From positions 5,684,874 through 5,748,873 of the forward strand of contig CM055901.1 in NCBI GenBank assembly GCA_029582155.1: a stretch of DNA of 64,000 nucleotides, given 5' to 3'. The translations under genes and the position numbers were made by a program. This stretch comes from Panopea generosa (Eukaryota > Mollusca > Bivalvia > Adapedonta > Hiatellidae). Positions 3,102-63,864 of this stretch are shown piece by piece (within the stretch, counting starts at the first letter, position 1; every line of letters begins with the position of its first letter). The notes under the pieces were generated by a model that did not search any database, was not told the DNA's origin, and saw nothing but the letters and a program-made list of their open reading frames with translations.

Positions 3102-3265
3102 AGATATCCACAGACATTACGAGTATCGTGTTGTTGGCAATAGGCTGTGTATTAGTTGCTGTATGCGTAGCTCTGTTTGTGGAAGAAATCGTCTTTTTGC
3201 AGCAGGCGTACAGTGGTGATGATACCAAAGTTAGAAAACAGGCAACGCTTCTCGGACTGTTTCCG
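3102..3265 (+). CDS. SLC51A: Ostalpha copy 1, exon A (TM1)
   Basis: Acceptor AATTTCAG and donor CCG/GTAAGT bound 164 nt, starting at codon position 2 and ending on a codon boundary. It encodes the first helix, with IVLLAIGCVLVAVCVALFVE, and a basic loop ending LLGLFP. It shares 37 of 55 residues with copy 2 exon A. An open frame continues upstream to 2969, but those residues do not look like the family and are probably intronic. Confidence 0.92.
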
Positions 3266-6200
3266 GTAAGTCGCTTGCCATTTATATATACATGTATAAC
3301 CATAATGTGTTTTTTTATTGCAATCGTACAATAAAAGTGAGTATCTAAATTATTTAAACTTTTAAAGCATGAATAATATATATTTAATTATTAAAGCAAC
3401 ATGTGGCAAATTTTGATGATTTTTTGTGCCATCCCTTGTATGCTCATCGGTGTATCATTTAGTATGATGTGCATTGTTCATTATATAGGGTCCTCCGTGG
3501 CTGAGTGGTCTAAGACGTTGTCTCAAGATCAATGACATCTCATCGCTAAGGTTGTAGGTTCGAGTCCCGGTCGCTCAAAAAAAACTATATTTGAGAAAGT
3601 TTGCCAGTTACTTGCGGAAGGACGGTGGTTCTACCCAGTCGATGATAAGACTTCCTCCACCAGTAAAAGCGGATATGCCATATATAACCTGAAATGTGTT
3701 GAAAATGACGTTACACCTCATTAAAAATCATTATAACCGCAATCGCACTGGTGGTCTAGTAATAAAACATTCGTTTCATATACGGAAGATCATATGTTTG
3801 ATCCATATTTGATCTAGATCCAGTCAGCTTGTTGTCAGTATATGTGACCGGATCGGATATTATAGCATGTGTTTGCGGTATGTAACTACTCTAGTGTGAC
3901 ATCGTTTTGGATACTTTTTCAATCATATTACTTACATTTTTTTCGAAAGCAACGCTAATCAATAAACATTATGATACTTTTTCATGACACGCCTACACGC
4001 ATCGCATCCACGCAATGCTATATAATCATACACTAGTCTATATTCATTCATTACATTTTCATTACAAACCAATTTATGATAACATCGCACCTACCATACT
4101 AATTTGCTCAACAACAGTATACGGTAGCTATGGAGCTATTGTTTTCTAGTTAATTTGATCATATACACTCTCTTATTCTCAGTTAACTTAGTTCTCTTAG
4201 TTAACAGATTAAATGAACATTCAGCCTAAACAAAAGAAGTGTACATTACCCGATTCTTAATTAACGGATATAATATAGTGGGGCTAATCCACAACTTGAA
4301 TGTTTCTATTGCAGCTGATTGGCATCTTATCTTTGTTATCCATACTTGTGCCGACATGTACCATTCTTGTCGACCTCATCGCAGCATGGTAAGTGTTAAA
4401 ATAATTAACACCCTGGTGATTTATGTACGATTTAATTTTATATCGTTCGCTTTTACCGTCTTGCTGCAAGTAATTAGTGGTCGTTAGACAAGCGAAGCTC
4501 TAACCCAATACCCCGGCGGTGAGAGATAAGTGGTCGTTAGAGGAGCGAGGCTTTAACCCAATACCTCGGCGGCGGTGAGAGGTAAGTGGTCTTTATTAGA
4601 GCGAGGCTCTAACCCAATACCTCGGCGGTGAGAGGTAAGTGGTCGTTAGAGGAGCGAGGCACAAACCCAGTACCTCGGCAGCGGTGAGAGGTAAGTGGTC
4701 GTTAGAGGAGCGAGGCACTAACCCAATACCTCGGCGGCGGTGAGAGGTAAGTGGTCTTTATTAGAGCGAGGCTCTAACCCAATACCTCGGCGGTGAGAGG
4801 TAAGTGGTCGTTAGAGGAGCGAAGCACAAACCCAGTACCTCGGCGGCGGTGAGAGGTAAGTGGTCGTTAGAAGAGCGAGGCTCTAACCCAATACCTCGGC
4901 GGTGAGAGGTAAGTGGCCATTAGAGGAGAGAGGCACTAACCCAATACCTCAGCGGTAAAAGGTAAGTGGTCTTAGAAGAGAGAGAGGCTTTAACCCAGTA
5001 CCTCGGCGGCGGTGAGATGTAAGTGGTCGTTAGAGGAGCGAGGCACTAACCCAATACCTCGGCGGCGGTGAGAGGTAAGTGGTCTTTATTAGAGCGAGGC
5101 TCTAACCCAATACCTCGGCGGTGAGAGGTAAGTGGTCGTTAGAGGAGCGAGGCACAAACCCAGTACCTCGGCGGCGGTGAGAGGTAAGTGGTCGTTAGAA
5201 GAGCGAGGCTCTAACCCAATACCCCGGCGGTGAAAGATAAGTGGTCGTTAGAGGAGCGAGGCTTTAACCCAATACCTCGGCGGCGGTGAGAGGTAAGTGG
5301 TCTTTATTAGAGCGAGGCTCTAACCCAATACCTCGACGGTGAGAGGTAAGTGGTCGTTAAAGGAGCGAGGCACAAACCCAGTACCTCGGCAGCGGTGAGA
5401 GGTAAGTGGTCGTTAGAGGAGCGAGGCACTAACCCAATACCTCGGCGGCGGTGAGAGGTAAGTGGTCTTTATTAGAGCGAGGCTCTAACCCAATACCTCG
5501 GCGGTGAGAGGTGAGTGGTCGTTAGAGGAGCGAGGCACAAACCCAGTACCTCGGCGGCGGTGAGAGGTAAGTGGTCGTTAGAAGAGCGAGGCTCTAACCC
5601 AATACCTAGGCGGTAAGAGGTAAGTGGCCATTAGAGGAGCGAGGCACTAACCCAATACCTCAGCGGTAAAAGGTAAGTGGTCTTAGAAGAGAGAGAGGCT
5701 TTAACCCAGTACCTCGGCGGCGGTGAGAGGTAGGTGGTCGTTAGAGGAGCGAGGCTCTAACCCAATACCTCGGCGGCGAGAGGTAAGTGGTCTTAAGAAG
5801 AGCAAAGCTTTAGCCCAATACCTCGGCGGTGAGAGGTAAGTGGCCATTAGAGGAGCGAGCCACTAAACCAATACCTCGGCGGTGAAAGGTAAGTGGTCGT
5901 TAGAAGAGAGGAGCTTTAACCCAATACCTCGGCGGTGAGAGGTAAGTGGTCGTTAGACGAGCGAGGCTCTAACCCAATACCTCGGCGGTGAGAGGTAAGT
6001 TGTCGTTAGAAGAGCAAGGCTCTAACCCAATACCTCGGCGGTAAGAGGTAAGTTGTCGCTAGAAGAGCAAGGCTCTAACCCAATACCTCGGCGGTGAGAG
6101 GTAAGTGGTCGTTATAGGAGCAAGGCTCTAACCCAATACCTCGGCGGTGAGAGGTAAGTGGTCGTTAGACGAGCGAGGCACTAACCCAATACCTCGGCGG

Positions 6201-9200
6201 CGGTGAGAGGTAAGTGGTCTTTATTAGAGCGAGGCTCTAACCCAATACCTCGGCGGTGAGAGGTAAGTGGTCGTTAGAGGAGCGAGGCACAAACCCAGTA
6301 CCTCGGCGGCGGTGAGAGGTAAGTGGTCGTTAGAAGAGCGAGGCTCTAACCCAATACCTCGGCGGTGAGAGGTAAGTGGCCATTAGAGGAGCGAGGCACT
6401 AACCCAATACCTCAGCGGTAAAAGGTAAGTGGTCTTAGAAGAGAGAGAGGCTTTAACCCAGTACCTCGGCGGCGGTGAGAGGTAGGTGGTCGTTAGAGGA
6501 GCGAGGCTCTAACCCAATACCTCGGCGGCGAGAGGTAAGTGGTCTTAAGAAGAGCAAGGCTTTAGCCCAATACCACGGCGGTGAGAGGTAAGTGGCCATT
6601 AGAGGAGCGAGCCACTAAACCAATACCTCGGCGGTGAAAGGTAAGTGGTCGTTAGAAGAGAGGGGCTTTAACCCAATACCTCGGCGGTGAGAGGTAAGTG
6701 GTCGTTATAGGAGCGAGGCTCTAACCCAATACCTCGGCGGTGAGAGGTAAGTGGTCGTTAGACGAGCGAGGCTCTAACCCAATACCTCGGCGGTGAGAGG
6801 TAAGTTGTCGTTAGAAGAGCAAGGCTCTAACCCAATATCTCGGCGGTAAGATGTAAGTGGTCGTTAGAGGAGCGAGGCACAAACCCAATACCTCAGCGGC
6901 GGTGAGAGGTAAGTGGCCGTTAGAAGAGAGAGGCTCTAACCCAATACCTCGACGTTGAGAGGTAAGTGGTCTTTAGAGGAGCAAGGCACAAACCCAATAC
7001 TTATGCGGCGGTGAGAGGTAAGTGATCGTTAGAAGAACGAGGCTTTAACCTGATACCTCGGCATTGAGAGGTAAGTGGTCGTTAAAGGAGCGAGGCACAA
7101 ACCCAATACCTCGGCGGTGAGAGGTAAGTGGTCGTTAGAAAAGCAAGGCTTTAACCCAATACCTCGGCGTTGAGAGGTACGTGGTCGTTAGAGGAGCGAG
7201 GCACAAACCAAATACCTCGGCGGCGGTGAGAGGTAAGTGGTCGTTAGAGGAGCGAGGCTTTAACCCAATACCTCGGCGGTGAGAGGTAAGTGATCGTTAG
7301 AAGAGCGAGGCACAAACCCAATACCTCGGTGTTGAGAGCTAAGTGGTCGCTAGAAGAGCGAGGCACAAACCCAATACCTCGGCGGTGAGAGATAAGATGT
7401 CGCTAGAGAAGCGAGGCACAAACCCAATACCTCGGCGGCGGTTAGAGGTAAGTGGTCGTTAGAGGAGCGAGGCACAAACCCAATACCTCGGCGGCGGTGA
7501 GAGATAAGTGGTCGTTAGAAGAGCGAGGCTCTTACCCAAAACCTCGGCGGTGAGAGGTAAGTCGTCGTTAGAAGAGCAAGGCTCTAACCCAATACCTCGG
7601 CGGTGAGAGATAAGTGGTCGTTAGAAGAGCGAGACACTGACCCAATACATCGGCGGCGTTGAGAGGTAAGTGGTCGTTAGAAGAGCGAATCAATGACCCA
7701 ATACCTCGGCGGCGGTGAGAGGTAAGTGGTCGTTAGAAGAGCGAGGCTCTAACCCAATACCTCGGCGGTGAGAGGTAAGTGGTCGTAAGAAGAGCAAGGC
7801 TCTAACCCAATACCTCGGCGGTGAGAGGTAAGTGGTCGTTAGAAGAGCGAGGCTCTAATCCAATACCTCGGCGGTGAGAGGTAAGTGGTCGTTAGAAGAG
7901 CGAGGCTCTAACCCAATACCTCGGCGGCGGTTAGAGGTAAGTGGTCGTAAGAAGAGCGAGGCTCTAACCCAATACCTCGGCGGTGAGAGGTAAGTGGTCG
8001 TTAGAAGAGTGAGGCTCTAATCCAATACCTCGGCGGTGAGAGGTAAGTGGTCGTTAGAAGAGCGAGGCTCTAATCCAATACCTCGGCGGTGAGAAGTAAG
8101 TGGTCGTTAGAAGAGCGAGGCTCTAACCCAATACCTCGGCGGTGAGAGGTAAGTGGTCGTAAGAAGAGCGAGGCTCTAACCCAATACCTCGGCGGTGAGA
8201 GGTAAGTGGTCGTTAGAAGAGCGAGGCTCTAATCTAATCCAATACCTCGGCGGTGAGAGGTAAGTGGTCGTTAGAAGAGCGAGCTCTTACCCAATACCTC
8301 AGCGGTGAGAGGTAAGTGGTCGTTAGAAGAGCGAGGCTCTAATCCAATACCTCGGCAGTGAGAGGTAAGTGGAACAACGGAGGTCCCCTGTATTTATTAA
8401 GACTTTGTTATTACTTGGCATATTATACGAGCTGGTGTAACTTTATATTAAGAAATCAATCTATTTTTTACTCTATAAACAAAATATTAACTAAACTATT
8501 TCTTGCTGATACATATTTTCCCTTTCTATTGTGATATTCCTGTGATCAGTTTCCTTGAATGTTTTAATGACTTAATTGCTATAGAATATATTTATGTTGC
8601 AGTTATCTGTCGGTGTGCATTTACACATTCGTTACCATGACGATCGATTATTTCGGTGGAGATGCCAAAATTATTGAAGCAATGAAAGATGATAAATTCA
8701 ACCTGAGTACCCCTCCATGTTGCTGCTGTTGTTGTTGTCTACTCAAACCTATAACACTTTCAGAGTACGTTTTAAATGTTAGGTATTGTTTACCAAAAAT
8801 ATCATTTGATGTAATGACCTTCTTACATAGAGGATATGGTTGCATGTGACATAATACTTACTGTAGCTAACCTTTATTTCCATCTCTCATCATTATTGTT
8901 CAATTTTATTAGGTTTATCCTCATATTCAACACAGTGCAGGTTTTATAATATAATGAAATCCCTTTTTATTGGCGTAAAATATCTTGCATTTTTTTATAT
9001 GAAATATTTGGACCAAGCTGAGCTCCATCTCACGAGCTCCGCGGTAAGCGGTAAGTGATCTTGAGAAAGCATTTTATTCAAAACGTCCACGAAAACACCT
9101 GCCTCATTGTTAAACTTGACCATCAGCCGAAATTTCATCTTGATAAAAATGTGATTTAAATATGACATATGAATACCCCACTGTGTTTGCTGACCTTCTA

Positions 9201-12200
9201 TTTCTTTTATTCTTTGGAACAATGCATAACTCTGGTATATACTTGACTAGCATGCTCTTTTCTTTTACCCGTTAATTAAAACTGCTATATGTGGATAGGT
9301 GTAAATGTTGATACGTGAACATAAACACAGTCTATTTCAACATTCGTATGTGTCCCTTTGAACTGAAACTTTTGAAATTATTGAAACATAGAAATACGCA
9401 ATAATTCAAAACTATGATTACTCTATTACGATTACATTTATTCGTATAATGAGATAGCTTGTACACGATGTTGTTTAGGCTTTTTTTCATTATCACAAGA
9501 ATTGGCTTATTGCAAATATACTTGTTTTATCACACGTGATTGTTCGTAATGTCTCTGTTGTATTACGTAATATTGTTTCGTAATATGTAATTCTATTTTG
9601 ACTCAAAAAGTTGTTTCATTATGTATTTCTATTATAATAGACGATTGCTAGAGTAATACGTATCTATGTTACCACAGACGATTGCTAGAGTAATACGTAT
9701 CTATGTTACCACAGACGATTGCTAGAGTAATACGTTTCTATGAGACGATTGCTAGAGTAATACGTATCTATGAGACGATTGCTAGAGTAATACGTATCTA
9801 TGAGACGATTGCTAGAGTAATAAGTATCTATGAGACGATTGCTAAAGTAATAAATATCTATGTTACCACAGATGATTGCTATAGTAATACGTATCTATGA
9901 GACGATTGCTAGAGTAATACGTATCTATGAGACGATTGCTAAAGTAATAAGTATCTATGTTACCACAGACGATTGCTAGAGTAATACGTATCTATGTTAC
10001 CACAGACGATTGCTAGAGTAATACGTATCTATGTTACCACAGACGATTGTTTCCTTTACATCTATACTTATTTTTACAGGAGATCTTTATTGTATATAAA
10101 GTTGTGTGCACTGCAAGTGGCCGTGGTACGTCCCGTGGTATTATTTATTGCAGCAGTGTTGTGGACGGACGGAAAGTATGAGGCTGACGTGGTATGTGAT
10201 CAAATAATATTTTAATGTGTAACGGTTTAAAACTTCAGGTTGTCTTATGACTCAGTATCGATCTTAAGTGAAAATTTCAAGTTTCAAAATAGCAATTACT
10301 TTTTAAATATAGAGAACCCATATACAAACGTTGAAATGAACGTCTCGGCTATATAAAAACAAGAACAATCCACTTTAAAATATAATTCGTATTGGTTATG
10401 ATTAATAACCACGTAAGCATGTTTTATTAAAATATCAGTTCATAAAACAGAACAGAACTACTTCTACTTTTACTACTACAACGACTACGACGACGACGAC
10501 TACTTATACATGTATACTCATACATGTATTAATACTTCTACCACCACCACCACCACATATATATATACTACCACAACTACTGCTGGTGAATAATAGCTTA
10601 TAATTTATTTTTTCTGTGTTAACGTGCTTATAACTATTTAAATAAATAATGCTAAGTATTCGTTTGATACTCACCCAAGTTTGATCGTTTTCAGGGTTCG
10701 GCATCGTCGGCGTATTTATACATATCTGTTATATCTGGGATCAGCACAGTGGTGTCCATGTATGGACTGATTGTTATGTTTAGAGGAACCCGACTACGAC
10801 TCCAACACTATCTTATCAATTACAAGTTTTTACCTCTGCAAATCACCATTATTTTGCTCAATCTACAAAACATTATTTTTAATCTTCTCGGACGTAATGG
10901 TATCCCGGAATGCATCGGCTCCAGGGGTCCCAAGGTCAGGACGAATGGTAATTGTTTTCTTTTACTTTAGATCAAACTTGAAATATCCCGATATAATACT
11001 ATAGATATGTGTTGAGATGGCATTATTGTGAAATTGAAATAAGTATCGTGTAGTAGCTCTAGTCTTTTCTGGCGAAGGAAACACTCTTTACGCAGAAGGT
11101 TCCTAAAACAAGAGAAAATAAGAGAAATTAAAAATACCAAACGCATAGCATAAGTGAATAAAATTTATTTTGACCCTGATGATTATAAGTAACATAACTC
11201 GTAACAAAACACCTAACCAGGTTCAGTATGTAGTTTTTATATACTTACGTAATATGTTAATACATGTACAGGTGTAAACACATCATTGATTTTTGTTCTT
11301 TACTCTGTAGGAAATAATAAAATTTTGAAGGCTTGGCATTCATAGAGAGTACCAAATTAAAGAAGTGAAACTTACATTTTACTGTTTGTCAACCTCTGCA
11401 CTATCAAGATATGATGAGAAAAGTAGAGGTCATGTGTCATATAAGAGATTTTTTCTGCTCAGTGTGCACACTGGTACCAAATTGAAAGTAGACTTCCGAA
11501 ATCATGTATTCATACCTCAATTTCCAAGCATCAATTTGTTTTTTCTAACTTCACAATTCAAACATGACAATGCTTTCAAAATGTTCAAACTACATCAATA
11601 ATGCTATTCAAATAAAAAAAGGAGCATTAAAATAAGGCAAATGCATTTTTAAAGAAGAAGAAACGAGGATTATTTATAACCACCATAATGCGACTACCCC
11701 ACGGAAGCACTTCCTTTTTGCAATGGTGGTGCTATGCCTACAATGTTCATGTTAATATGCTGTATATTTTAAATGAAGTGCTTAGTCTGTTTAACCAATA
11801 GATTGTGAAATATTGGGTCATTCTTAATCGCCGACTTTTGTGGCCGACGTCAGCTATGAGTAAATCAAATTATGTAAGCAAAACGCTGACAAGTTAGAAA
11901 ACGCGATTCAAGTTGATCAAATACTTCCCGTTACTAAGCATGTATTATAAAGCTGCGTATAACCATTTATTAAGATGTATTTTATTATATTTTCTGGTTA
12001 CAATGAAATAAAAACTGATCCCATTCCTGCAATCGTTTCCCGTCTTTCTAAATTCATAATTCTGTTATATACTGATATAGTGACCACCTTTGATTTTATC
12101 TAGAAAATACACATTAAAAACACTGTATCTATTAATTTAAAGGAGACTCGAGCTAATTTCTGAAGTCACTATCAATATAAAACAATAAGAAAATGTTTCC

Positions 12201-14177
12201 CTGTTACAGAAGACTGAATATAAATTTCATATATACTGTATCAGAAGAAATGTTTCGGTAAATCTGATGAACACAGTGTGTATGTTATTATATCCGTTAA
12301 CCTAAGTGAACTGGCAAACTTTCAACATCCGCTAAATCATTATCGTTAGTTCCAAACTTCATTTTTAAAATAGACCACAAAGACATAATATATTAACCAT
12401 AAATGTATATATCTTACAGCGATGAACCACGCGATACTTGTTATAGAAATGTTCCTTCTGTCTCTCCTTGCGAGAAAGGGCTACCGCGTGGAGGAAACCC
12501 ACTCTCCAGAAATCGACAAAGAGGAGGGGGGTTTCGAGAACGTCGTCACCACACAAGATGAAAATAATCTTGGAATGAAAGTAAGACATGTTGATAAAGG
12601 TGTATAACCACCATTGATATTCTTTTAATCTTTCTTTTTCTACAAAGAAAAATTCATATTTACATAGTTGCTATTCAGATAAAATATCAATTGAAGAAAG
12701 GAAAGGAAACTTTGTTGTTGGTGAACATTTACAGTGCCAAGATATCGTAAAAATAGACATCAATATCAATTGTATTACCGAATTCTGATTATGCTCATTG
12801 TGTGTACACAAGTGACCCAAATGGAATTAGATTTCTAAAATAATGTATGCATACTCACCCCATCACCATTTTTCTTTTATTTGCTTGATTTCTTTTCTAT
12901 GTTCATAATTGGAACATGACTTTGCTTTTAAAATGTATTGATTTTACTAATTATGCCAATCAAGCAAAAACAAAACTGCTCATAACAACGAACAAAATTT
13001 ATTTTTAGTTAAAAAGAAACAATGTTTATTTATGGATGCAATAATGCGGTATTATGTTTGGTTGTTTTAAACATCTAACCAAATGCTCAAGGTGCCGTCT
13101 GGGTCTGCAGCTTTACTGTATACTTATTTTATCTGTTTATACGGTTTATTAATCTGACAATGAAACTTTCCGTACTTTTAGAACTTTTTGTATAGTCTAC
13201 CCCAGAACCTGATATCTCCCGAATCACGTCTACCCCAGAACCTGATATCTCCCGAATCACGTCTACCCCAGAACCTGATATCTCCTGAATCACGTCTACC
13301 CCAGAACCTGATATCTCCTGAATCACGTCTACCCCAGAACCTGATTTCTCCTGAATCACGTCTACCCCAGAACCTGATATCTCCTGAATCACGTCTACCC
13401 CAGAACCTGATATCTCCCGAATCAAGTCTACCCCAGAACCTGATATCTCCTGAATCACGTCTACCCCAGAACCTGATTTCTCCCAAATCACGTCTACCCC
13501 AGAACCTGATTTCTCCTGAATCACGTCTACCCCAGAACCTGATATCTCCTGAATCACGTCTACCCCAGAACCTGATTTCTCCCAAATCACGTCTACCCCA
13601 GAACCTGATATCTCCTGAATCACGTCTACCCCAGAACCTGATTTCTCCCAAATCATGTCTACCCCAGAACCTGATATCTCCCAAATCATGTCTACCCCAG
13701 AACCTGATATCTCCCGAATCAAGTCTATCCCCAGAACCTGATATCTCCCGAATCACGCCTATCCTAGAACCTGATATCTCCCGAATCACGTCTATCCCAG
13801 AACCTGATATCTCCTGAATCACGTCTACCCCAGAACCTGATATCTCCCGAATCAGGTCTCTTACCCCCCAATGAAACATCAGAGAAGTATATGATGGTCC
13901 CCCAATTCATAGCAATTGAACGCTTACTAAACTGTGACATCATTCAAACTTTCATTTGCAGCAACTGACCAATCAATGTACTCAAATGTGGCTTCTCAAA
14001 CATTGCTTTTTAACGGACCCAGATTACATTGTGTGTTTAGTGTACATCTATATTCCTATATTGAAGCGTAGTTTATAAAACCAGCATGTAAAGTAACATA
14101 TATTCATGGGAACATTGTACGATTGGTTTGTTAAAAAACATCTACCTGTGAATATTTTTACATATTTATTTCAGTGA
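3102..14177 (+). CDS. SLC51A: Organic solute transporter alpha-like gene, copy 1 (first exon not found)
   Basis: Spliced coding segments: 3102-3265, 4315-4388, 8603-8764, 10080-10191, 10695-10947, 12420-12580, then stop TGA at 14175-14177. All junctions are AG/GT and phases 0, 2, 2, 0, 1, 0 keep the frame open. The product is a polytopic membrane protein with seven predicted helices: one each in exons A, B, C, D and F, and two in exon E. A run of seven cysteines after PP in exon C and MNHAILVIEMFLLSLLARKG in exon F match the Ostalpha family. In vertebrates Ostalpha pairs with Ostbeta to export bile acids and steroid conjugates by facilitated diffusion; the ligand here is unknown. The expected extracellular N-terminus is missing: exon A starts in phase 1 and no matching upstream exon was seen. 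The introns are loaded with tandem arrays (53-bp, 30-bp, 33-bp) and transposons. A TMEM184-like protein is a less likely alternative, because the Cys motif and C-terminal length fit Ostalpha better. Confidence 0.9.
3489..3735 (+). mobile_element. tRNA-Leu-headed SINE in intron A-B of copy 1
   Basis: The head contains GGCTGAGTGGTCTAAGACG (A-box region) and GTAGGTTCGAGTCCCGGTCG (B-box region), spaced as in a long-variable-arm tRNA such as tRNA-Leu. The body then runs past an A-run into non-tRNA sequence shared with 63004-63240 and 63353-63595, for example GATATGCCATAT. The acceptor stem does not pair well and the sequence continues into a body, so this is a SINE rather than a tRNA gene. Confidence 0.75.
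4315..4388 (+). CDS. SLC51A: Ostalpha copy 1, exon B (TM2)
   Basis: A 74-nt exon between TATTGCAG and CATG/GTAAGT. It enters in phase 0 and leaves two bases of a split codon (TG+T, Cys). It encodes helix 2, LIGILSLLSILVPTCTILVD and following residues. 22 of its 24 complete codons match copy 2, making it the most conserved exon of the pair. Confidence 0.93.
4472..8375 (+). repeat. 53-bp satellite array filling intron B-C of copy 1, about 70 units
   Basis: About 3.9 kb of head-to-tail units, mostly 53 bp, with 56-bp variants where GGCGGTGA becomes GGCGGCGGTGA. Unit landmarks in order are GAGGTAAGTGGTCGTTAG, GAGCGAGGCTCTAACCC and AATACCTCGGCGGTGA. Variant units (CTTTATTAGAGCG, CACAAACCCAGTA, CAGCGGTAAAAGG) recur in a fixed order, giving a higher-order period of 711-752 bp in the left two thirds; the right end is more uniform. 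Most units carry GAG/GTAAGT, an excellent 5' splice-site consensus, in the sense orientation of the host gene. It starts about 84 bp after the exon B donor and ends about 230 bp before exon C. Confidence 0.95.
8603..8764 (+). CDS. SLC51A: Ostalpha copy 1, exon C (TM3 and poly-Cys motif)
   Basis: A 162-nt exon between ATGTTGCAG and CAGA/GTACGT, entering and leaving in phase 2. It encodes helix 3, then IDYFGGDAKIIEAMKDD, then PP followed by seven consecutive Cys. The FGG and PP-poly-Cys signatures are diagnostic of Ostalpha, where this cysteine cluster is reported to be lipid-modified. Confidence 0.94.
9645..10046 (+). repeat. 30/37-bp minisatellite in intron C-D of copy 1
   Basis: About 12 units of AGACGATTGCTAGAGTAATA followed by CGTATCTATG. 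Some units add TTACCAC to make 37 bp. The core CACAGACGATT..TACGT is shared with the much larger 23-bp array at the same intron position in copy 2. The 30-bp unit is divisible by three, which produces a spurious repetitive open frame at 9703-9900. Confidence 0.9.
10080..10191 (+). CDS. SLC51A: Ostalpha copy 1, exon D (TM4)
   Basis: A 112-nt exon between TTTTTACAG and GACGTG/GTATGT. Its first base completes a Glu codon started in exon C and it ends in phase 0. It encodes RSLLYIKLCALQVAVVRPVV, then LFIAAVLWTDGKYEADV. The aromatic-DG-Y motif at the helix end matches the equivalent position in vertebrate Ostalpha. Confidence 0.92.
10695..10947 (+). CDS. SLC51A: Ostalpha copy 1, exon E (TM5-TM6)
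   Basis: A 253-nt exon between GTTTTCAG and GAATG/GTAATT, phase 0 in and phase 1 out. It encodes helix 5 (SAYLYISVISGISTVVSMYG..), a basic loop with RGTRLRLQHY, helix 6 (LQITIILLNLQNIIFNLLG) and a loop IPECIGSRGPKVRTN. Reading frame, exon length and loop sequence are closely conserved with copy 2. Confidence 0.93.
11270..11745 (-). mobile_element. MITE-like dispersed repeat, about 465 bp, in intron E-F of copy 1
   Basis: The reverse complement of the repeat seen at 26410-26875 and, with an internal deletion, at 32115-32500. Landmarks are CCACCATTGCAAAAAGG at one end, the palindromic GGAAGTGCTTCC beside it, and AAAAATCAATGGTGG at the other end. CCACCATTG and CAATGGTGG form short terminal inverted repeats. 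Any open frame inside, such as 11365-11601, is incidental. Confidence 0.82.
12420..12580 (+). CDS. SLC51A: Ostalpha copy 1, exon F (TM7 and cytoplasmic tail)
   Basis: A 161-nt exon between ATCTTACAG and ATGAAA/GTAAGA. It encodes MNHAILVIEMFLLSLLARKG (helix 7 and the following basic turn) and a tail ending QDENNLGMK. Reading through the donor would add nine codons to a stop at 12605-12607. The donor, the matching donor in copy 2 and a conserved downstream acceptor argue for splicing here, giving a tail the same length as copy 2. Confidence 0.88.
13195..13862 (+). repeat. 33-bp minisatellite in the last intron of copy 1, about 20 units
   Basis: Units read CACGTCTACCCCAGAACCTG then ATATCTCCTGAAT, with a few point variants (ATTTCTCC, CCCGAAT, CCCAAAT). 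Because 33 is a multiple of three and units rarely change length, open frames of 197-233 codons exist on both strands. These are artefacts of the array. Copy 2 has no array in the corresponding intron. Confidence 0.93.
13904..14020 (-). repeat. Intronic segment inverted relative to copy 2
   Basis: The plus strand here (AATTCATAGCAATTGAACGC .. CAACTGACCAATCAA .. TTTAACGGACCCAG) matches the reverse complement of 45941-46046 over about 115 bp with scattered substitutions. Both lie in the last intron of their gene copy. Either a short transposon inserted in opposite orientations or a local inversion happened after duplication. It carries a CCAAT-box-like ACCAATCA and, in copy 2, TGACGTCA. Confidence 0.75.
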
Positions 14178-33027: not shown

Positions 33028-36000
33028 GTAACGTAATTGTTTAGTTTACCTTATATAACTAGCATTGTATTCCGTATTAGCTCATTTAAAAAGTAATATA
33101 CCTCAACACGTGACTGATTGCATATATAATTATGGACTAAATATTGCGTATCGAAATCAGAGTAATTAAATTGAAATTGCTCAAAAGAACAGCTGTTCAT
33201 AATCATCATGTCATCCCATGTCTGGCGCTATACTTAATATTGATACTTAACATCACTACTATTGCATCCGTATCTGTATTTATCTCTCTTCTGTCCTACT
33301 TGAAAACTTTTGAGATCTGAACCTGTAATTACGTCGCCCCACAAACCATTGCGAATTTCCAAATAGTAAGCGATTTTTATGTGTCCCCCATCCCCACACA
33401 CCCTAGTTTTGAAATAAACTTTCAAAAAATCTTTCTAAATATGAGATCATGCGTACGTAGGTATTTTAGAATCTAATATGGTACTTATCTATATCGATTG
33501 TATTTTTGCAGAGGGACAATGTTACGACCGATTTATTCAAATCAATGTTTACACCTGTGCACGCTTATAACTACATCTAATATCCCGTGTCTAACCATTT
33601 CAGAGATATCCTCAGACACTTTGAGTGTCGTGTTATTGGTTACTTGCTGTATATTAGTGGCCATCTGTTTAGCTCTGTTTGTGGAAGAAATTGTCTTCTT
33701 GCATCGCGCGAACACTGGTGATGATGTTAAAATCAGAAAACATACAACGCTTCTGGGACTGTTTCCGGTAAGTCACGTGATATTTATATACAATCTAATA
33801 AAATGTGGGTTTGACAAGAGTCCTAGTATAGTAAACACATGCTTTTGTGTTAATAGGAAATACATATGTTAAAACTTTGATACGTTTAAAACAGCCTTTA
33901 CCAGATATATATAAAGGGAGATAATTAAATTCACAACAACGGAATCTACGATTTTTGGGATCTTTTCAGATGCTCATTCACAATGCATGATATATATATA
34001 TATGTAGATAATTATTTGTGAATAACCAGACATAAACGTACAAACCAGACTACGACGAGCTACAATGCAAACCATAGACACAATATCAATGCCTCTGCCA
34101 AAACAATATTTCGTGTCGACCATGACTTATATACTATGGATTTATATGCAACACATCTGGACTGGATGGATAATTTACATACATTAACTGATAACTTTAT
34201 TAGAGTAGGATCCAGTTAAGGATTTATGACTACCTTCATGCTATATAAAGGACATATTTATGAACCCGTAGGATCAAAGAGATACTGTGAATTCATATAT
34301 ATTTTATTTCATAAAGGGAGATAATTAAATTCACAACCACGGAGTTTACGTTATATAAATACCACTGCATACAATAACTTTGCACTAATAAATACACGTC
34401 TATGTATGTACAATATTCTTACGTGAATTCCTCTACGTGGCCGGGACAAAATGTTGCTGTCGAGGGTATATTGCGAATCAAAATTGAATTTTAAATAACT
34501 CTGAATGTTTTATTTTTAAATCGCTGCGACATTTTGAAAACGACAAATGATATCTGTCGGTTCACCATACCTTGTTCCTTAACAAACGATTTTTTATGGA
34601 TGTCAATAAACAAATACATTTTTTCTGAAAGAGAAATAGAGAGAGAGTAGCCATTATACTTTCCTATTCATGTATGTTTCGTCGTAATAGACAAAACAAG
34701 CGCAGAAAAAAACATTTATCTTTCCATCTAGGTTCTATCAATCGAATCGAAAATGCTTATGAAATGAAATTATACATGTTAGTCTATTAATCATTGATTG
34801 ATTCCCTTATGTATTTCCTATTTTTCAAAGGCAGTATTATATTTATACAGAAATTAAAAAATCTTACAATGAATGTAACAGCGGCTAATAGTAACACTTC
34901 CACTTAGCTACCGAGATAGCAGAAGCACTCCACTCTACCGTAGCATCAATCGAATAGTTCGTTTATCTTCCACTTGGCGACCGAAATAGAAGAACACTCC
35001 ACTCTACAGAAGCATCAATTGAATAGATCGATTATCTTCCACTTGGCGATCGAGATAGCAGAAGCACTCCACTCTACCGTAGCATCAATTGAATAGATCG
35101 ATTATCTTCCATTTGGCGATTGAGATAGCAGATGCACTCCACTCTACCGTAGCATCAATTGAATAGATCGATTATCTCCAACTTGGCGACCGAGATAGCA
35201 GAGGCACTCTACTCTACCGAAGTATCAATTTAATATATCGATTATCTTCCACTTGGCGATCGAGATAGCAGAAGCACTCTACTCTACCGTAGCATCAATT
35301 GAATATATCGATTATCTCCCACTTGGCGACCGAGATAGCAGAAGCACTCTACTCTACCGTAGCATCAATTGAATAGATCGATTATCTCCCACTTGGCGAT
35401 CGAGATAGCAGAAGCACTCTACTCTACCGTAGCATCAATTGAATAGATCGATTATCTCCCACTTGGCGACCGAGATAGCAGAAGCACTCTACTCTACCGT
35501 AGCATCAGTTTAATATATCGATTATCTTCCACTTGGCGATTGAGATAGCAGAAGCACTCCACTCTACCGTAGCATCAATAGAGTAGATCGATTATATTCC
35601 ACTTGGCGATCGAGATAGCAGAAGCACTCCACTCTACCGTAGCATCAATAGAGTAGATCGATTATCTCCCACTTGGCGATCGAGATAGCAGAAGCACTCC
35701 ACTCTACAGTAGCATCAATTGAATAGATCGATTATATTCCACTTGGCGATCGAGATAGCAGAAGCACTCCACTCTTCCACTTGGCGATCGAGATAGCAGA
35801 AGCACTCTACTCTACCGTAGTATTAATTGAATAGATCGATTATCTTCCACTTGGCGACCGAGATAGCAGAAACACTCTACTCTACCGTAGTATTAATTGA
35901 ATAGATCGATTATCTTCCACTTGGCGACCGAGATAGAAGAATCATTCCACTCTACAGTAGCTTCAATTGAATAGATCGATTATCTTCCACTTGGCGACCG

Positions 36001-39000
36001 AGATAGCATTCCATTCTACTGTGGCATCAATTGAATAGTTCAATTATCTTCCATATCGTGAGACGAGCGTAATGTTGAGTATGACACTAGTGTTTTGAGC
36101 ACACAAGAGCTGATTCTGTTCAACACTTTTTATCTGTACATGTTTGCGATCTGACGTCATTATAGTTGAATATGTGTTTCTGCGGGTGCGCTACACAAAT
36201 CAATAAATCACACAATAGGAACGCGTGTAAAATAATGTAAAGTCTGTTCTCAATCAAGTTTATTTTGTAAGAAATGTCAAAATTAAATATGTATATGTCG
36301 TAAGACTTCTGCAGTATGACTGATATAATTAAACTTTAATCATATTTCATTTATTCGACCAAAGTACTAATTGATGCTATCTTTGTAGAATAACAAAAAT
36401 GATACCTCGCGAATACCCCAAAAGTACATATAATTACGCGATTTCATCCGATTGAGACAAAAACAACGTCAGCAAAATAGGACCGTTTTAACAAGCACCT
36501 GATTCTAAAGATGTTTCGCCATGTTATCCAGAATAAACTTGACATTTTGAGCTTAATTGGACATTTACAATCATTCTGTGTGATAACCTTTTTGCGCTTA
36601 TTTAATCGTACTTATCTGATTGAGGCATTTTTCGAATTGAAATGCTTAAATAAAACATTTCCCCCAATAATTCATTTTTCCATGTTGTTGATTAGATTTA
36701 AACTAATATTCCTTTTACTTGGTTGCGTTTTCTTCGGTTAAACATGCTTAATGTGTTAGCAAATTGAACGTTACACAACTGAACAAAAAGTAAAAGGAAA
36801 TCGGATCAGATCGATACTGCCTCTCTCTCACATGATTAATTAATAGAAAACGATTCTAAACGGTGTTTGCTTTGATAGCAATCAAGTCGTTCAGTTGTGT
36901 GGTTATCAAACGTTTACAGCACGCATGTCGTTCAGTTGACTTGTGTTATCAAACGTTTACAGCAAGCATGTCGTCCAGTTGACTTGTGTTATCAAACGTT
37001 TACAGTACACATGTCGTTCAGTTAACTTGTGTAATCAAACGTTAGCAAACATGCTGTTCAGCGAACTTGTGTTATCAAACGTTAGCAAACAAATTAAACG
37101 TTTAACTGAACACAGCCCAGGCAAAACCGTAGGATAAAATTTTCCTAACCCATGTACAGTATACTGATACAATGCAATGGTGCTAGTTTATATTTTGAAT
37201 ATCTTTATTACAGCTGATTGGCATCTTATCTTTGCTGTCCATACTTGTGCCGACATGTACCACACTTGTCGACCTCACCGCAGCATGGTAAGTGTAAAGT
37301 ATGTAGTCCGTGTTGTGTCAATATTAAGCACGAATATTAAGCACTTCTAATTGGCTGATGCATAAAACCTTTTTTATGAGCTGTTGACGCATATAAAATA
37401 CAGAAATCTCAGAGTGAACAAGTATACGGTCTGTACTGGAGCCTGTGCTCTTTGCATTCTGATTCAACTATCATTTCAACATTTTGATGAAATTTATTTG
37501 AAAATTGTTTTTCAGTCTTTAACGTTTGAGAAACAACATATACAATTATGATACTTCCTATTTGAACAGGTCCCCAGGAAATGACGACCTGTATTTGTTA
37601 AAATTCCTTTATTATTAAAGTCATTATTCCGCTAAACAATCCCCAACCTCTCCATCCCCTCGTACCATCACATTCTCATCCTGCTAATCTGTTTATCCAT
37701 TAATTTCAATATTTAACTTTCGCTTTGATTTTATTTTAACTCACATATATTACCACCAACAAACTATTCTTTTTTCTAAATAACATTAGTTTGTTCCATC
37801 TCTAGTATCATAGTACGATATTCCAGTATCCATATCACCGGGCAATGTATATTTTGTTCAGACAATGGTCAGTTTGAGCGGGATACACGAATTCTTATCA
37901 AAACTGTTATAAGCTTGCATATTATTGGAACTGGTGTGTCTTTAAGGTTAATAGGTAGTGTTGTAATGCCCCGTATTTTGACAGTTCATAATTTATCGGA
38001 CCTCTTTTCAAAGAATTAATCTGCGCTATTTTAAATGTTTTGTCTTGTTTTACATTTCAAGTCAAGTTGCAATCATTTACTTAATAGTGAATCTTTTAAC
38101 AGCGTCAGTGTTGACCTAGTAACACGGTTAGATAAATTGTGTTATCCGTAAACACTTCGTTGTTATTGTTGGACCATGCTTTGATCTGCAATTTTTTATG
38201 TTGGCAGTAGCGCATGATGGGAATTGTTGTCATAGTGACCAGAATGTTGTACGAGACACGTTACCCGAGAGCGTAACAGTATCAACATATGTCACTCTGC
38301 TTCTATAAAAACAAATTATCATTAATTAATTGATCTTATTTATGTTCATTAAAAGAAAATTATTTATGCATAAAACGTATTACGTATATTCCAATACTCA
38401 GTTTCATGAAACGTTTTACTGACTTAAATATTTCACATGATATATTTTGCAGTTATCTGTCGTTGTCGATTTACACATTCTCTACGATGATAATAGATTA
38501 TTTCGGCGGAGAAGCTAAAATGATTGAAACAATGAAAGATGAAACATTCCGCCTGGCTACACCTCCATGCTGCTGCTTCTGTTTTTGTATACTCAAACCA
38601 ATAACACTTTCAGAGTAAGTCCCGAATGCAATTTTTACAAACAGATCTTTTTAAAGAAGTGACCTTCTCATTTAAAGAGATATCTATTGTATCTTTCATC
38701 TTCATCTTTCAGTTGAGTGTTCAATTGTTAATGAATTTATTGCCATGTTCAACACAATGCCGTTTATATTGATCATCATCATCCAAATCATCATTATCAT
38801 AATCATCATCATCATCATCATCTCTACTAATCGCATTCCTCTGGAAGAGTACTCTCGCAATGTGGTTAAATACGTATTATTACGTTACATTGTAGACGAG
38901 TATTATATTCCATCACATACTATTATTTTGCTGCATCACAGACTGTCATTACGTTACATTACAGATGATTATAAAATTATATCACAGACAATTTTTACGT

Positions 39001-42000
39001 TACACCACATACTTTTATAACGTTACATCAAATACTATTATTACGTTACATCACTGACGATTATTACGTTCCATTACAAACTAGTATTACGTTACATCTT
39101 ACATCACTGACGATTGTTCCGTTACATTACATACGACTATTTCGTTGCATCAAAGACGAATATAACGTTATATCACAGACGATTATTACGTTACATCACA
39201 GAGGAGTATTACGTAACATGACCTACTATTATTTTGCTGCATCACAGACTGTAATTACGTTACATTACAGACGATTATTACGTTTCATCACAGACTGTTA
39301 TTACAATACATCACAGACGATTAAAACGTAACATCACAGACGAATAGTACGTTACATCACAAACTAGTATTGCGTTATATCACAGACGGTTATTACGTTA
39401 CATCACAGAGTATTATTACGTTATATCACCGACTATTATTACGTTATATCCGGACTATTTTTACATTACATCACATACTATTATTACGTTACACCACTGA
39501 CGATTATTACGTTGAATCACAGACTAGTATTACGTTACATCACATACTATTATAACGTGACACCATTGACGATTATTACGTTGAATCACATACTAGTATT
39601 ACGTTACATCTCTGACGATTATAACGTTACATCATATACTATTATTACGTTACATCACTGACGATTATTACGTTACATCACAGACAATTATTACATTACA
39701 TCACAGAGGAATATTACGTTACATCACCGACTAATATTACGCTACATCACAGACGATTTTTACGTTACACCACAGACGATTTTACGTTACATCACAAACT
39801 ATTATTAAGTTACATCACAGACGATTATTACGTTACATCACAGAGTATTATTACGTTATATCACCGACTATTATAACGTTACATCACAGACTATCTTTAC
39901 GTTACATCACATACTATTATAACGTTACACCACTGACGATTATTACGTTGAATCACAAACTATTATTACGTGACATCACAGAAGATTATTACGTTACATC
40001 ACAGAGTATTATTACGTTATATCACCGACTATTATAACATTACATCACAGACTATTATTACGTTATATTACCGACTATTATTACGTTACATCACAGACTA
40101 TTTTTACGTTACATCTCATACTATTATTACGTTACACCACTGACGATTATTACGTTGAATCACAGACTAGTATTACGTTACATCACATACTTTTATTACG
40201 TTACACCACTGACTATTTTTACGTTGAATCACAGACTAGTATTACGTTACATCACAGACGATTATAACGTTACATCACTGACGATTATTACTCAACATCA
40301 CAGACGATTATTACGTTACATCACAAACAATTATTACGTTACATCACAGAGGAATATTACATTACATCACCGACTAATATTACGTTACATCACAGACAAT
40401 TTTTACGTTACATCACAGACGATTATTACGTTAGATCACAGATTATTATAACGTTACATCACATACTATTACAACGTTACATAGCATACTATTATTACGA
40501 TACATCACAGACGGATATTACGTAACAACACATACTATTAATACGTTATATCACACACGATTATTACGTTATATCACATACTAGTATTACGTTACATCAC
40601 CTACTATTATTACGTTACATCACAGACGATTATTACGTTACACACAGACTATTATTACGTTACATCACAGACAATTATTACGTTACATCACAGACTATTA
40701 TTACGTTACATCACAGCCAATTATTACGAAACATCAAAGACTAATATAACGTTACATCACATACTATTATTACGTAACATCACAGACGATTATTACGTTA
40801 CATCATTGCCTATTATTACATGACATCCCATACTATTATTACGTTAGATAATATATTACTATTACGTTACATCACAGATGATTATTACGTTACAACATAT
40901 ACTATTATTACGTTATATCACAGACGATTATTACGTTACTTCACATACTATTATTACGTTATATCAAAGACAACTATTACGTTACAACACATACCATTAT
41001 TACGTTATATCACGGACGATTATTACGTTACAACACATACTATTATTATGTTACATCACAGACGATTATTACGTTACATCACATGCTATTATTACGTTAT
41101 ATCACCGACTATTATTACGTTACATCACAGACGATTATTACGTGACATCACTGACGATTGTTCCGTTACATCACACACGATTGTTTCGTTGCATCAAGGA
41201 CGAATATTTCATTGCCTCACAGACAATTATTATGTTACATCAAAGACGAATGTTTTATTACATCACAGAATATTGTTCTTACTGTATAAACAGTCAAACT
41301 TGCTTTAAGCAGCCACAGTGGCTGATTTTGAGGCATGTTTGGATGTATGTATATATATTATCACATATGATTGTTCTCATTGTTACATTACACGTTTATT
41401 TACTTTTTTTCACAGAACATTGTTTTACATAACATTTATATTTATCATTTCAACAGACGATCCTTACTGTATATAAAGCTGTGTGCATTGCAAGTGACCG
41501 TTGTGCGTCCCGTGGTGTTATTTATTGCAGCAGTATTGTGGACGGACGGAAAATATAAAAAAGACTTGGTATAACATCAACTTCTGTCATAAAATAATAC
41601 TTTTGATGCTTGATGGTTTTATTAATCAGGTTATCTTGTGATTCAGTATCAATAATAAGCGTAATTATCAAGTTTTTATTATCAATTGTTTATCGAATAT
41701 ACAAAATACATACACCAACTTTGTAATGTACTTTACAAATATAGAAAACACCTGCACACACTTTGTAATTTATTTCTACAGCATTGAAAACACCTGCTTC
41801 TATTTCAAAATGAACCTCTCAAATATTGAAATATCTGTACCTACTTTGATATGTACTTCTCAAATAAAAAAACACATGCACACACTTTGTAATGCATTTC
41901 TCAAATTTGGAAAACACCTGCACCCACTTTGAAATGTAAGTCTCGAATATTGTAAATATTTGCACTTACTTTGTAATGTACTTCTAACATATAATAATCA

Positions 42001-45000
42001 CAAGCACACACTTTGAAATAGACTTCTTAAATATAAATGCACACGCTTGTCCTTTGTTAAACACGTAAATACACTTTTAATGTAATTCTCAAATATGGAA
42101 ACCACCTGCACCCACTTTGAAATGTACTTCTCATATATTGAAAATATCTACACCTACTTTGTATTGTATTTCTCAAATATAGGAACAACTGTAAACACTT
42201 TTTAATGCACTTTTTAAATATAGAAAACACCTGCACACACTTTGTATTTTTTTCTCTAATACATGGAAAACACCCGCTTCCAATTTGAAATGAACAAACA
42301 CATGCACACACTTTGTAATGTATTTCTCAAATTAGAAAAAGCACCTGCACCCACTTTGAAATGTTTCTCCCAAATATAGAAAACACCTGTACGAATTTTG
42401 TAATGTTATTCTCGAATATTGAAAACATCTGCATCTTCTTTGACTTGTACTTCTCAAATAAAGAAAACGTCTGCACACACTTTGTAATGCATTTCTCAAA
42501 CAAGGAAAACTCCAGCGCCCATTTTGTTATGTACTTCTCAAACATTGGAAACACCTGAACCCACATTGAATTGTACTTCAAAAAATTTGGATACAATCTG
42601 CATCTTCTTTGAAATGTACTTCTCAAATAAAGAAAACACCTGCACACACTTTATAATGTACTTCTCAAACAAAGAAAACACCTGCACACACTTAATAATG
42701 TACTTCTCAAATAAAGGAAACACCTGCACACACTTAATAATGTATTCTTAGATAAGGAAAACACATGCACACACTTTATAATGTATTCTTAAATAAGGAA
42801 AACATCTGCACACACTTTATAATGTATTCTTAAATACGGAAAACACCTGCACACACTTTATAATGTATTCTTAAAAAAGGAAAACACTTGCGCCTACTTG
42901 GTCATTTACTTTTCAAGTAAAGAGAACGCCTGCACCACTGTATAATTTATTTCGTTTAGATTTTAATTAATACGTACAGAAACTTGTTTAATAAAAATAT
43001 GGAACAGAACAAAAATGTGTTGATTTCATCATAATACAACTTTTCATCATACAATACACAACACAAGCTTCTATATTTTATCATTTTCAGGGTTCGGTTT
43101 CGTCGGCGTATTTATACATATCTGTTATATCTGGCATCAGCACATTGGTGTCCGTGTATGGACTGGTTGTTATGTTTAGAGGAACCCGACTACGACTCCA
43201 ACACCATCGAATCAACTATAAGTTTTTATCTTTACAACTCGCCATTATCATACTCAACCTACAAAACATGATCTTCAATTTTCTCGGAAGCAAAGGTATC
43301 CCGGAATGCATCGGTTCCAGGGGTCCCAAGGTCAGGGCAAACGGTATAAAGTTTTTACTTTATTATGGATAATGACGAAATTCACGAAATGACATTGTTG
43401 CAAAATACAGTTTTGCGATCGCTCTTTGGTCTGTACAATATCAAGAATTTATTATTGTCAACTGTTACTCCATCCTAAAGTTGATGACAAATTTAGCGCA
43501 AAACTATAGGATTAATGAACGGCAACACATCTTAGTTACATGCATATATTCAGATCTTCTTGTGTTTCTTTTCTAGTGGAGGAAGCCATTTCGGAGGTGG
43601 TCGTCTTTATCTGAAGAATATAAAATAAAAACAAAAGTAAAAAAAAAAACAGAATTAAAATTGACAACAATTTATAAATGCAACATGTTAATTCGGTTTA
43701 CAAGGCTATCATTTTAACCCGACACCATTGCTTATAAGTACATAAAACCTAACCCCTTTTAAGTATGTACTTTTGTTAATATATCTAAGCCATAAGTACA
43801 TGCACATCACTATACTGTATTTCGGTTAGGTCGCGTGGGCGGTTATTTAGATATTACTATGGACGCTGCAATAATGAAACTTCATGTTCGTCATTTCTGT
43901 TCGTGCTTAACTTTAATGCATATCAATATAAAACAAATGATACTGTTATACTGTAATATTAGACTGAATCTATATAGTGTTTCATTAACTGCATCAAATA
44001 TGTTTTCGTACATCTAATAAACAAAGTGTGTCTCTTATTGTAATTAATACAGAATACAGAAAAGTTTCATTTGGATTTTTAGCATATTACATACATGTAG
44101 TTTATCATCACAAATAATAACATGTGCATGCATAAAAAACAAAACATGCAAATTCAAATACAGGTTATATAAAGGAGAGAAATCTATATTTGTGTATCGT
44201 TATGATTATTTCTATAGCATTATTTTCATATCGTTCATGCATCATGTTGTTGGCATATTTTGTATGTACATTTATTACCAAAGTAAATATTGTTGCAAGT
44301 CAGCTATTTCTCAGGTGGTTGAAGATCGAGGTAGTAATTTAAACAATTAAATCACAAGATGAGGTATTAACTAAGGCACACTCCGCTTTAAATATCTCAA
44401 TTAAATAAAGTTGGAAAGCAAAAGAGTAAACAAGATTATGCTCAATTTTCTATACTTTAATTGTCATTCATGTAATTATTGGTAATCTACAAGTGTGCGT
44501 GACATGAATAATAATGCTACAAAATGTCAACTTAATTCACTTAAAACATACCTAAATAAATCAGTTTCCCAAGAATGCCTATAAAACATACCTAAATAAA
44601 TCAGTTTCCCAAGAATGCCTATAAAACACAATTAAATAAATCAGTTTCCCAAGAACGCCTATAAAACACACTTCAATAAATCAGTTTCCCAAGAATGCCT
44701 ATAAGTCTGTTTTATTGCTCTTTATTTATTACACTATCTAATTTATAAAATGTGTTAAATTATAAGCTTTAGAAATTAAAAAAATATTTAATACTAACTA
44801 AGACTTACAAAGAAAGAGATAAGAAACTTCAGGTGTATTTATAAAGAAAATGTACGGGGTCCAGAATTCAGTTTGCATTGACTATTTATACATAAACTGA
44901 TCACGCAAATAAAAGTGCTAGAATCCCACAACATATTAGTAAGGACTCCCGAAAAATGACGTCGTGAACGTCGTAACGTATAAAATATGTGGGACATCCC

Positions 45001-54650: not shown

Positions 54651-54754
54651 ATTCTTCAATCACAATTAGCACTTATTTATAGAATTTGGGCAAAAATAAA
54701 CATTTACATGTTATATTACTGCATTAGATTGAAACGTTCACGAGTTATAACAAA

Positions 54755-63003: not shown

Positions 63004-63240
63004 AGGGTCCTCTGTGGCCGAGTGGTCTAAGGTGCTGTTTCAAGATCTCTCACATGCTAAGGTCGTAGGTTCCAGTCCCGCTCTCTCCAAAAATTTTATG
63101 TGAGAAAATTTCCAGAAGTATTTGTTTAGGCGCGTCAAATACACAGTGAACACTATGACATGTAAGTACAAAATATAAGAATACTAAGCTGGCATGTGAT
63201 ACAATGTTTGTTAATGCCTTGCATTTTAAGAAAAAAAACA
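63004..63240 (+). mobile_element. tRNA-Leu-headed SINE
   Basis: GGCCGAGTGGTCTAAGGTGC and GGTCGTAGGTTCCAGTCCCG form a tRNA-Leu-like head. The acceptor ends do not pair, and a body (GTGAGAAAATTTCCAG) shared with 3489-3735 follows. The right boundary is uncertain. Confidence 0.72.
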
Positions 63241-63352
63241 TATTTTAATGTACCCTTATATAATAACTTACTCATAATGAAGTCAAAACATCACCAACTC
63301 GATTTCCGTAAATACCGTATCAAACCCTACTGTCATTAAAGTGAACATGTGT

Positions 63353-63790: not shown

Positions 63791-63864
63791 GAACTATTAA
63801 TATAACAAAAAGGCATGCAGACTTACATATTATATATTGATATACATGGGTTTTTTTAGATGCA

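What the first reader, a model, noticed from the sequence alone, without database searches (positions are those of the whole stretch)
4472..8375. Intronic satellite carrying about 70 copies of a 5' splice-site consensus in sense orientation
Nearly every 53-bp unit contains GAG/GTAAGTGG, which is a better donor than several real donors of the host gene. The array sits 84 bp after the true exon B donor. It could act as a large U1 snRNP decoy or platform, suppress premature polyadenylation, or create array-derived cryptic exons. The orientation matters: on the opposite strand the motif would be silent.
Basis: partly seen in the sequence, partly recalled or inferred. Interest (0 to 1): 0.8.

Follow-up and report, generated by a model that had tools for sequence, protein, structure and literature searches.

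The report
SINE-derived satellite carrying splice-donor look-alikes
An intron of an animal transporter-like gene holds about 72 tandem copies of a piece of a mobile element lying backwards, and most copies happen to resemble a strong splice donor; it is most likely a passenger, although it could be tested as a natural array of sites for the splicing machinery.

Summary
An array of 71 full and 2 partial units (53 bp, with 56-bp variants) fills 4476-8372, inside an intron of an Ostalpha-like gene. It carries GTAAGT 62 times on the gene's sense strand and never on the other. The consensus site GAG|GTAAGTGG is predicted to pair with U1 better than the five donors placed in this gene; 58 of 72 unit sites equal or beat exon B's donor.

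The origin is the new point. The unit is part of the head of a dispersed repeat family in this window, in antisense; I judge it a tRNA-type SINE. A search with the copy at 3487-3729 gives 41 hits at E<=1: itself, three other copies, and 37 in the array, all minus strand; two control queries gave none. One antisense single copy in the next intron has GTAAGT at the same place.

No clear sign that the donor is maintained: GT is lost in 6 of 72 units and ranks 23rd of 53 dinucleotides. A tandem paralogue has no array in this intron. The intron has no AATAAA or ATTAAA to suppress, and the acceptor side is poor. Most likely it holds mostly silent pseudo-donors. No RNA was available.

The parts
4476..8372 (+). 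Array of 71 full and 2 partial units of 53/56 bp; antisense derivative of a SINE-like head; donor-like GAG|GTAAGTGG in most units
   Evidence: TRF; unit alignment; motif counts; U1 energies
4315..4388 (+). Exon B of the Ostalpha-like gene, copy 1 (donor ATG|GTAAGTGT at 4389, U1 -11.0)
8603..8764 (+). Exon C of copy 1
4389..8602 (+). Intron B-C of copy 1 that holds the array; no AATAAA or ATTAAA found in it
   Evidence: scanned to 8601
3102..12607 (+). Copy 1 of the Ostalpha-like gene, exons A-F (3102-3265, 4315-4388, 8603-8764, 10080-10191, 10695-10947, 12420-12607); the 5' part was not found
   Evidence: Pfam PF03619 E 3.7e-47 on the joined exons
33604..45901 (+). Copy 2, tandem paralogue with exons A-F (246 of 319 alignment columns identical)
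37288..38452 (+). Paralogous intron B-C, about 1.16 kb, no array
3487..3729 (+). Repeat copy S1 with tRNA-like head, in sense, intron A-B; the query that detects the array
8906..9094 (-). Repeat copy S4, single, antisense, in intron C-D; carries GCG|GTAAGTGA at 9051 at the position aligned to the array donor
4455..4473 (-). Left flank resembling the body of S1 (16 of 19 bases)
   Evidence: 9 of 2000 shuffles as good
8377..8387 (-). Right flank possibly the 5' end of the repeat (GGGACCTCCGT against GGGTCCTCCGT); not significant
   Evidence: 226 of 2000 shuffles as good
63004..63113 (+). Repeat copy S2, same family
63350..63502 (+). Repeat copy S3, same family

Best explanation
A SINE with a tRNA-like head inserted in antisense into the B-C intron of one copy of a duplicated Ostalpha-like gene. 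About 53 bp of its head (3521-3573 in copy S1) then expanded by unequal exchange into some 72 tandem units. On the gene's sense strand the antisense head spells GAG|GTAAGTGG, so the array became a row of U1-matching pseudo 5' splice sites. They are copied by homogenisation, not kept by selection. U1 may bind some of them in nascent RNA, but without good acceptors next to them they mostly stay silent and leave with the intron; rare use would add a premature stop. Shown here: the array, its antisense relation to a dispersed repeat family, the predicted U1 pairing, the stops, the array-free paralogue. Inferred: that the family is a tRNA-type SINE, the expansion mechanism, neutrality, and silence in the cell.
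For: S1 as nhmmer query gives 41 hits at E<=1: itself, S2, S3, S4, and 37 in the array, all minus; reversed and complemented S1 give none at E<=1. In the reverse test a two-unit array model finds S4 at E 2e-4 and S1 at E 7e-4; its three further hits below E 5 (E 0.49, 1.8, 4.2) are weak but all fall on tRNA-like heads. S4, a single antisense copy, has GTAAGT aligned to the unit's donor. GT is lost in 6 of 72 units; column 1 is 91.5% conserved against 93.6% for the mean column; among 51 distinct units GT ranks 23rd of 53 dinucleotides. In the first 44 units, 3 and 5 unit pairs at 13 and 14 units distance are identical, which points to segmental copying. The paralogue intron lacks the array. Read-through past exon B gives W then stop. 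Array acceptor context has 3 T in 17 bases against 7-10 in the six real acceptors, and ends in GAG where all six end in CAG.
Against: Among distinct units AG|GTAAGT is the best conserved of 53 8-mers and GTAAGT 2nd of 53 6-mers, which mild constraint could give; the 9-mer ranks 6th (9th on all units). Single matches between the repeat and the array are weak (best E 0.003 from the S1 side). In a simple alignment test 2, 22 and 55 of 1000 shuffles did as well as the unit against S1, S2 and S3, and a recalled tRNA-Glu scored as high as S1 with 0 of 1000, so the tRNA source is unsure. Neither Rfam (E up to 10) nor ARAGORN calls a tRNA in S1 or in the array; 'tRNA-like' rests on a B-box-like GGTTCGAGTCC and likeness to a recalled tRNA-Leu. 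S1, S2 and S3 do not have GTAAGT at the place. By count of pyrimidines the array acceptor (8 of 17) equals the weakest real one (exon C, 8 of 17). The right flank match is not significant.
Confidence: 0.72

Rival explanations
1. The array is a functional U1 platform: many U1 particles bind the intron and suppress premature polyadenylation or hold the pre-mRNA, so that the motif is maintained.
For: GTAAGT 62 times in sense; consensus U1 energy beats the five placed donors of the gene; 64 of 66 intact sites equal or beat exon B's donor after opening cost; AG|GTAAGT is the top-ranked 8-mer for conservation.
Against: No AATAAA or ATTAAA in the B-C intron of copy 1; in the scanned stretch 8766-10080 the first are at 9275 and 9849, beyond exon C. 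The paralogue does without the array. GT itself is not specially conserved. The array RNA is predicted about ten times less accessible than the rest of the gene (median 0.003 against 0.033).
Confidence: 0.08
2. The array donors are used at a measurable level as alternative donors, pseudo-exons or dual-specific AG|GT sites, giving a ladder of unstable transcripts whose amount depends on array length.
For: AG directly precedes GTAAGT and CTAAC lies about 20 bases upstream in the consensus unit (seen); donors are strong; UBC shows such a ladder in human (PMC10809524, sections seen).
Against: Acceptor context with GAG and 3 T in 17; many units lack CTAAC, and unit length 53 or 56 is not a multiple of three; the three sense frames of the array hold 84-99 stops each; stop directly after exon B when reading starts at AG|GT.
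Confidence: 0.15
3. The array is an unrelated satellite, and its likeness to the repeat head is coincidence or comes from another tRNA-derived element.
For: Rfam finds no tRNA in the array or in S1; a recalled human tRNA-Glu matches 14 of 15 bases and 0 of 1000 shuffles did as well.
Against: 37 of 41 S1 hits lie in the array, on one strand, controls empty; the likeness is collinear over a whole unit in S1 and S4; the left flank continues into the body of S1. Another tRNA-derived source would still be an origin of the same type.
Confidence: 0.05

Closest known systems
SINE-derived satellites (sSats) of squamate reptiles, Vassetzky et al. 2023, PMC10702118 (abstract and Discussion read)
   Same: Tandem repeats made of a portion of a SINE of the same genome; most are reported with a longer terminal unit that runs on to the SINE end.
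   Different: Here one known locus, intronic, with 53-bp units, in an unnamed animal; the unit carries a splice-donor motif; number of loci in the genome unknown.
PcH-sat of the limpet Patella caerulea, related to a Nin-SINE, PMC11121367 (abstract read)
   Same: Satellite that contains a SINE segment.
   Different: 179-bp monomers, pericentromeric, about 10% of that genome.
IFI6 (6-16) minisatellite that provides multiple splice donors, Turri et al. 1995 (title seen in reference lists; use described in one passage of PMC4526556; paper itself not held)
   Same: Tandem repeat whose unit matches a splice donor.
   Different: There repeat units are described as used donors; here the array starts 87 bases inside the intron behind a separate predicted donor, and use is untested.
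Dual-specific splice-site array of polyubiquitin UBC, PMC10809524 (abstract, part 1 of Results and the UBC section read)
   Same: AG|GT at regular intervals in a tandem repeat.
   Different: UBC repeats are coding, 228 nt, frame-neutral and shown to splice; here noncoding, 53/56 nt, full of stops.

Membership tests
SINE-derived satellite | Repeat unit matches part of a SINE, collinear and on one strand | tested here: met
   37 of 41 S1 hits in the array, all minus; alignment over a whole unit. That S1 is a SINE is my judgement; no repeat library was at hand.
SINE-derived satellite | Source family present as single copies in the same DNA | tested here: met
   S1-S4 in the window
SINE-derived satellite | Source is a SINE with a recognisable tRNA head | tested here: inconclusive
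   B-box-like motif and likeness to a recalled tRNA-Leu; no Rfam or ARAGORN tRNA at S1
SINE-derived satellite | Terminal units run on into the SINE | tested here: inconclusive
   Left flank 16 of 19 bases, 9 of 2000 shuffles; right flank 226 of 2000
SINE-derived satellite | Several loci in the genome | not testable with these tools
   The genome search did not complete
Splice-donor minisatellite (IFI6 type) | Unit contains a strong donor in sense inside a gene | tested here: met
Splice-donor minisatellite (IFI6 type) | Units are used as donors of an exon | not testable with these tools
   No RNA data; the predicted exon B has its own donor 87 bases upstream
Dual-specific splice-site array (UBC type) | AG|GT at most units | tested here: met
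   GAGGTAAGT 54 times
Dual-specific splice-site array (UBC type) | Unit length keeps the reading frame | tested here: not met
   53 and 56 nt; stops in the three frames
U1 telescripting platform | Polyadenylation signals in the protected intron | tested here: not met
   No AATAAA or ATTAAA in the B-C intron of copy 1; variant signals not searched

The most novel reading that the evidence does not exclude
Antisense tRNA-SINE heads are a seed for tandem arrays of U1-binding sites: amplification inside an intron turns one pseudo-donor into a long U1 platform of some 60 sites that changes splicing or 3'-end choice of its host gene in proportion to array length.
Probability: 0.07. Interest if true: 0.75.

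Novelty: new member of a known kind. Interest (0 to 1): 0.35.

Why it matters
If the sites are silent, some 60 donors predicted stronger than the real one, starting within 200 bases behind exon B, are a severe natural test of how the splicing machinery ignores pseudo-sites. The array-free paralogue in the same genome is a built-in comparison. If they bind U1, the locus is a natural dose series for U1 tethering to one intron. It also adds a case where the strand of a mobile-element insertion decides what its satellite looks like to the RNA machinery.

Tried and rejected
Rfam at gathering score found nothing in the window; for 1-9500 at E up to 10 it gave five matches, among them a tRNA-like one at 3745-3816 just under the cut-off, none in the array and none at S1. 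ARAGORN, bacterial code, found no tRNA.

A tRNA-Glu origin was my first idea, from a 15-base match to a recalled human tRNA-Glu; the S1 family replaced it because it covers the whole unit.

RNA structure hiding the donors: a hairpin exists in the consensus unit but is not unusual on the sense strand (z -1.5 for one unit, -1.0 for the 120-base stretch, -1.0 for a 56-bp variant; minus strand z -3.2). Donor 9-mers are about as accessible as other array 9-mers and more so than exon B's donor, but less than donors C, D and E and than the rest of the gene. Not an explanation for silence at exon B.

Aligning the two B-C introns to place the insertion failed; they are too diverged outside the exon edges.

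Minus-strand Pol III transcription was considered and set aside by inspection only: the unit keeps a B-box-like GGTTAGAGCC (consensus recalled) and lacks the 5' part of the head where an A box would lie.

Pattern scans for the unit or a SINE-like version of it in viral contigs and genome contigs gave 0; these are viral and prokaryote collections, so this says little.

Paper searches.
Full report
WHAT IS THERE. The array lies at 4476-8372. Alignment to its consensus gives 71 full units and a partial one at each end, 53 bp long with 56-bp variants that carry three extra bases, mostly CGG. Within the first 44 units, 3 unit pairs at 13 units distance and 5 at 14 are identical; other distances up to 19 give 0-2. 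GTAAGT occurs 62 times on +, none on -; GAGGTAAGTGG 48 times on + and nowhere else in the window.

HOST GENE. Exons A-F were placed by homology between two copies and by splice consensus. The joined proteins match Pfam Ostalpha (PF03619) with E 3.7e-47 and 7.9e-47. Copy 1 is 3102-12607, copy 2 33604-45901; 246 of 319 alignment columns are identical. The 5' part of the gene was not found. The array is in intron B-C of copy 1. The matching intron of copy 2 is about 1.16 kb and has one GTAAGT, its own donor; no 53-bp array is listed there and no unit was detected there. There is no RNA support for either model.

DONOR STRENGTH. Duplex energy with the U1 5' end (recalled sequence) is -11.8 kcal/mol for the consensus site. 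Real donors: A -9.3, B -11.0, C -3.4, D -6.1, E -5.1. Of 72 unit positions (the truncated first unit was dropped), 58 are at or below exon B's value and 6 have lost GT. The unit next to exon B is truncated and the second has lost GT, so the first intact donor is at 4582. With the cost of opening local structure, 64 of 66 sites with intact GT are at or below exon B's value; the array as a whole is predicted less accessible than the rest of the gene (median probability 0.003 against 0.033), and donors C, D and E are more accessible than the array median. Outside the array, 5 of 8096 GTs on both strands reach -11.8. A shuffled unit reaches it in 35 of 3000 cases. Among 15 array consensi that I took, only this one passes -7 on either strand, though individual units of the array at 59651-62100 reach -11.6 (14 sites at or below -9).

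ORIGIN. An nhmmer model of two units, run on the window with the array masked, found 9017-9067 (+, E 2e-4), inside the copy here called S4, and 3573-3521 (-, E 7e-4), inside S1. Three weaker hits below E 5 (0.49, 1.8, 4.2, all minus) fall in tRNA-like heads, judged by eye, at 63402-63453, 63047-63084 and 63634-63661. A further hit at 19361-19330, E 11, is not on a head that I recognised. In the other direction, S1 (3487-3729) as single query gives 41 hits at E<=1: itself, S2, S3, S4 and 37 in the array, all minus; reversed or complemented S1 gives none. The array hits are weak one by one, best E 0.003. One, 4559-4455, runs out of the array into the left flank, where 16 of 19 bases match the body of S1 (9 of 2000 shuffles as good; 139 of 16689 window stretches as good, the best of them overlapping S1 or S4). 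The right flank resembles the 5' end of S1 but not significantly (226 of 2000). In a plain alignment test of the unit against S1, S2, S3, shuffles did as well in 2, 22 and 55 of 1000 cases, and a recalled tRNA-Glu scored as high as S1 with 0 of 1000. S4 is a single antisense copy in intron C-D and has GTAAGT aligned to the unit's donor, U1 energy -10.1. So the motif is most simply a property of some antisense copies of this head; S1, S2 and S3 do not have it.

WHAT KIND OF REPEAT. I call the family a tRNA-type SINE from its dispersed copies, a B-box-like GGTTCGAGTCC and likeness of S1 to a recalled human tRNA-Leu. Rfam with E up to 10 and ARAGORN find no tRNA at S1. The family name and the tRNA source are therefore inference.

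IS THE DONOR KEPT? Mean column identity is 0.936. Column 1 (the G of GT) is 0.915, column 2 is 1.0. Among 51 distinct units AG|GTAAGT is the best of 53 8-mers, GTAAGT 2nd, the 9-mer 6th, GT 23rd; on all 71 units the 9-mer is 9th. These ranks are mixed, the spread is narrow, and units are not independent; I read them as no clear selection, but mild constraint is not excluded.

WHAT COULD IT DO? Polyadenylation protection: no AATAAA or ATTAAA in this intron; in the scanned stretch behind exon C the first ones are at 9275 and 9849; intron A-B, upstream of the array, has six. Exon formation: acceptor context is GAG with 3 T in 17, real acceptors are CAG with 7-10 T, although by pyrimidines the array (8) equals exon C's acceptor (8). 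The three sense frames hold 84-99 stops. Reading past exon B gives tryptophan then stop, as in copy 2, and so does adding 1 to 3 consensus units from AG|GT onwards; other entry points were not tested. So most use would be destructive. The commitment is: U1 can probably bind, the sites are mostly silent, and the array is a passenger.

KNOWN RELATIVES. SINE-derived satellites are described in squamates (PMC10702118: abstract, Discussion) and a SINE-related satellite in a limpet (PMC11121367: abstract). A minisatellite with splice donors is known from human IFI6 (Turri et al. 1995, seen only through citing papers), and tandem AG|GT sites that splice are known from UBC (PMC10809524: abstract, part of Results). 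The combination, an antisense SINE satellite whose unit is a strong donor, was not seen in the listings, which cover open-licence papers only and show only the top of each list.

LIMITS. The species is not identified. The genome search tool did not complete, so genome-wide copy number, other arrays and the intact source element are unknown. U1 energies are a proxy; no trained splice model was run.

Noticed in passing
3102-12607 and 33604-45901: Old tandem duplication of an Ostalpha-like gene; exons A-F and some satellites downstream are shared between the copies.
   Followed up: partly
15662-17318 and 53014-54659: A 24-bp satellite behind both gene copies, mostly 73-79% alike between the copies, so it seems older than the duplication or was exchanged.
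   Followed up: no
59651-62100: A 25-bp array with AGGTAGAG on +; 14 sites with U1 energy at or below -9, best -11.6; a second, weaker donor-like array, outside the gene.
   Followed up: partly
about 780-950, 1315-1500 and 63863-64000: Related repeats with the core CTGTCTTAAGCAG, perhaps a small mobile element; 1315-1452 matches 63863-64000 at 78%; the first by eye.
   Followed up: no
17765-19023, minus strand: Broken open frames that may be a non-LTR retrotransposon; of four tested, one had a weak Pfam RVT_1 match below the cut-off (E 0.0078).
   Followed up: partly
13195-13859: 33-bp satellite with long open frames on both strands, unlikely to be a gene.
   Followed up: no
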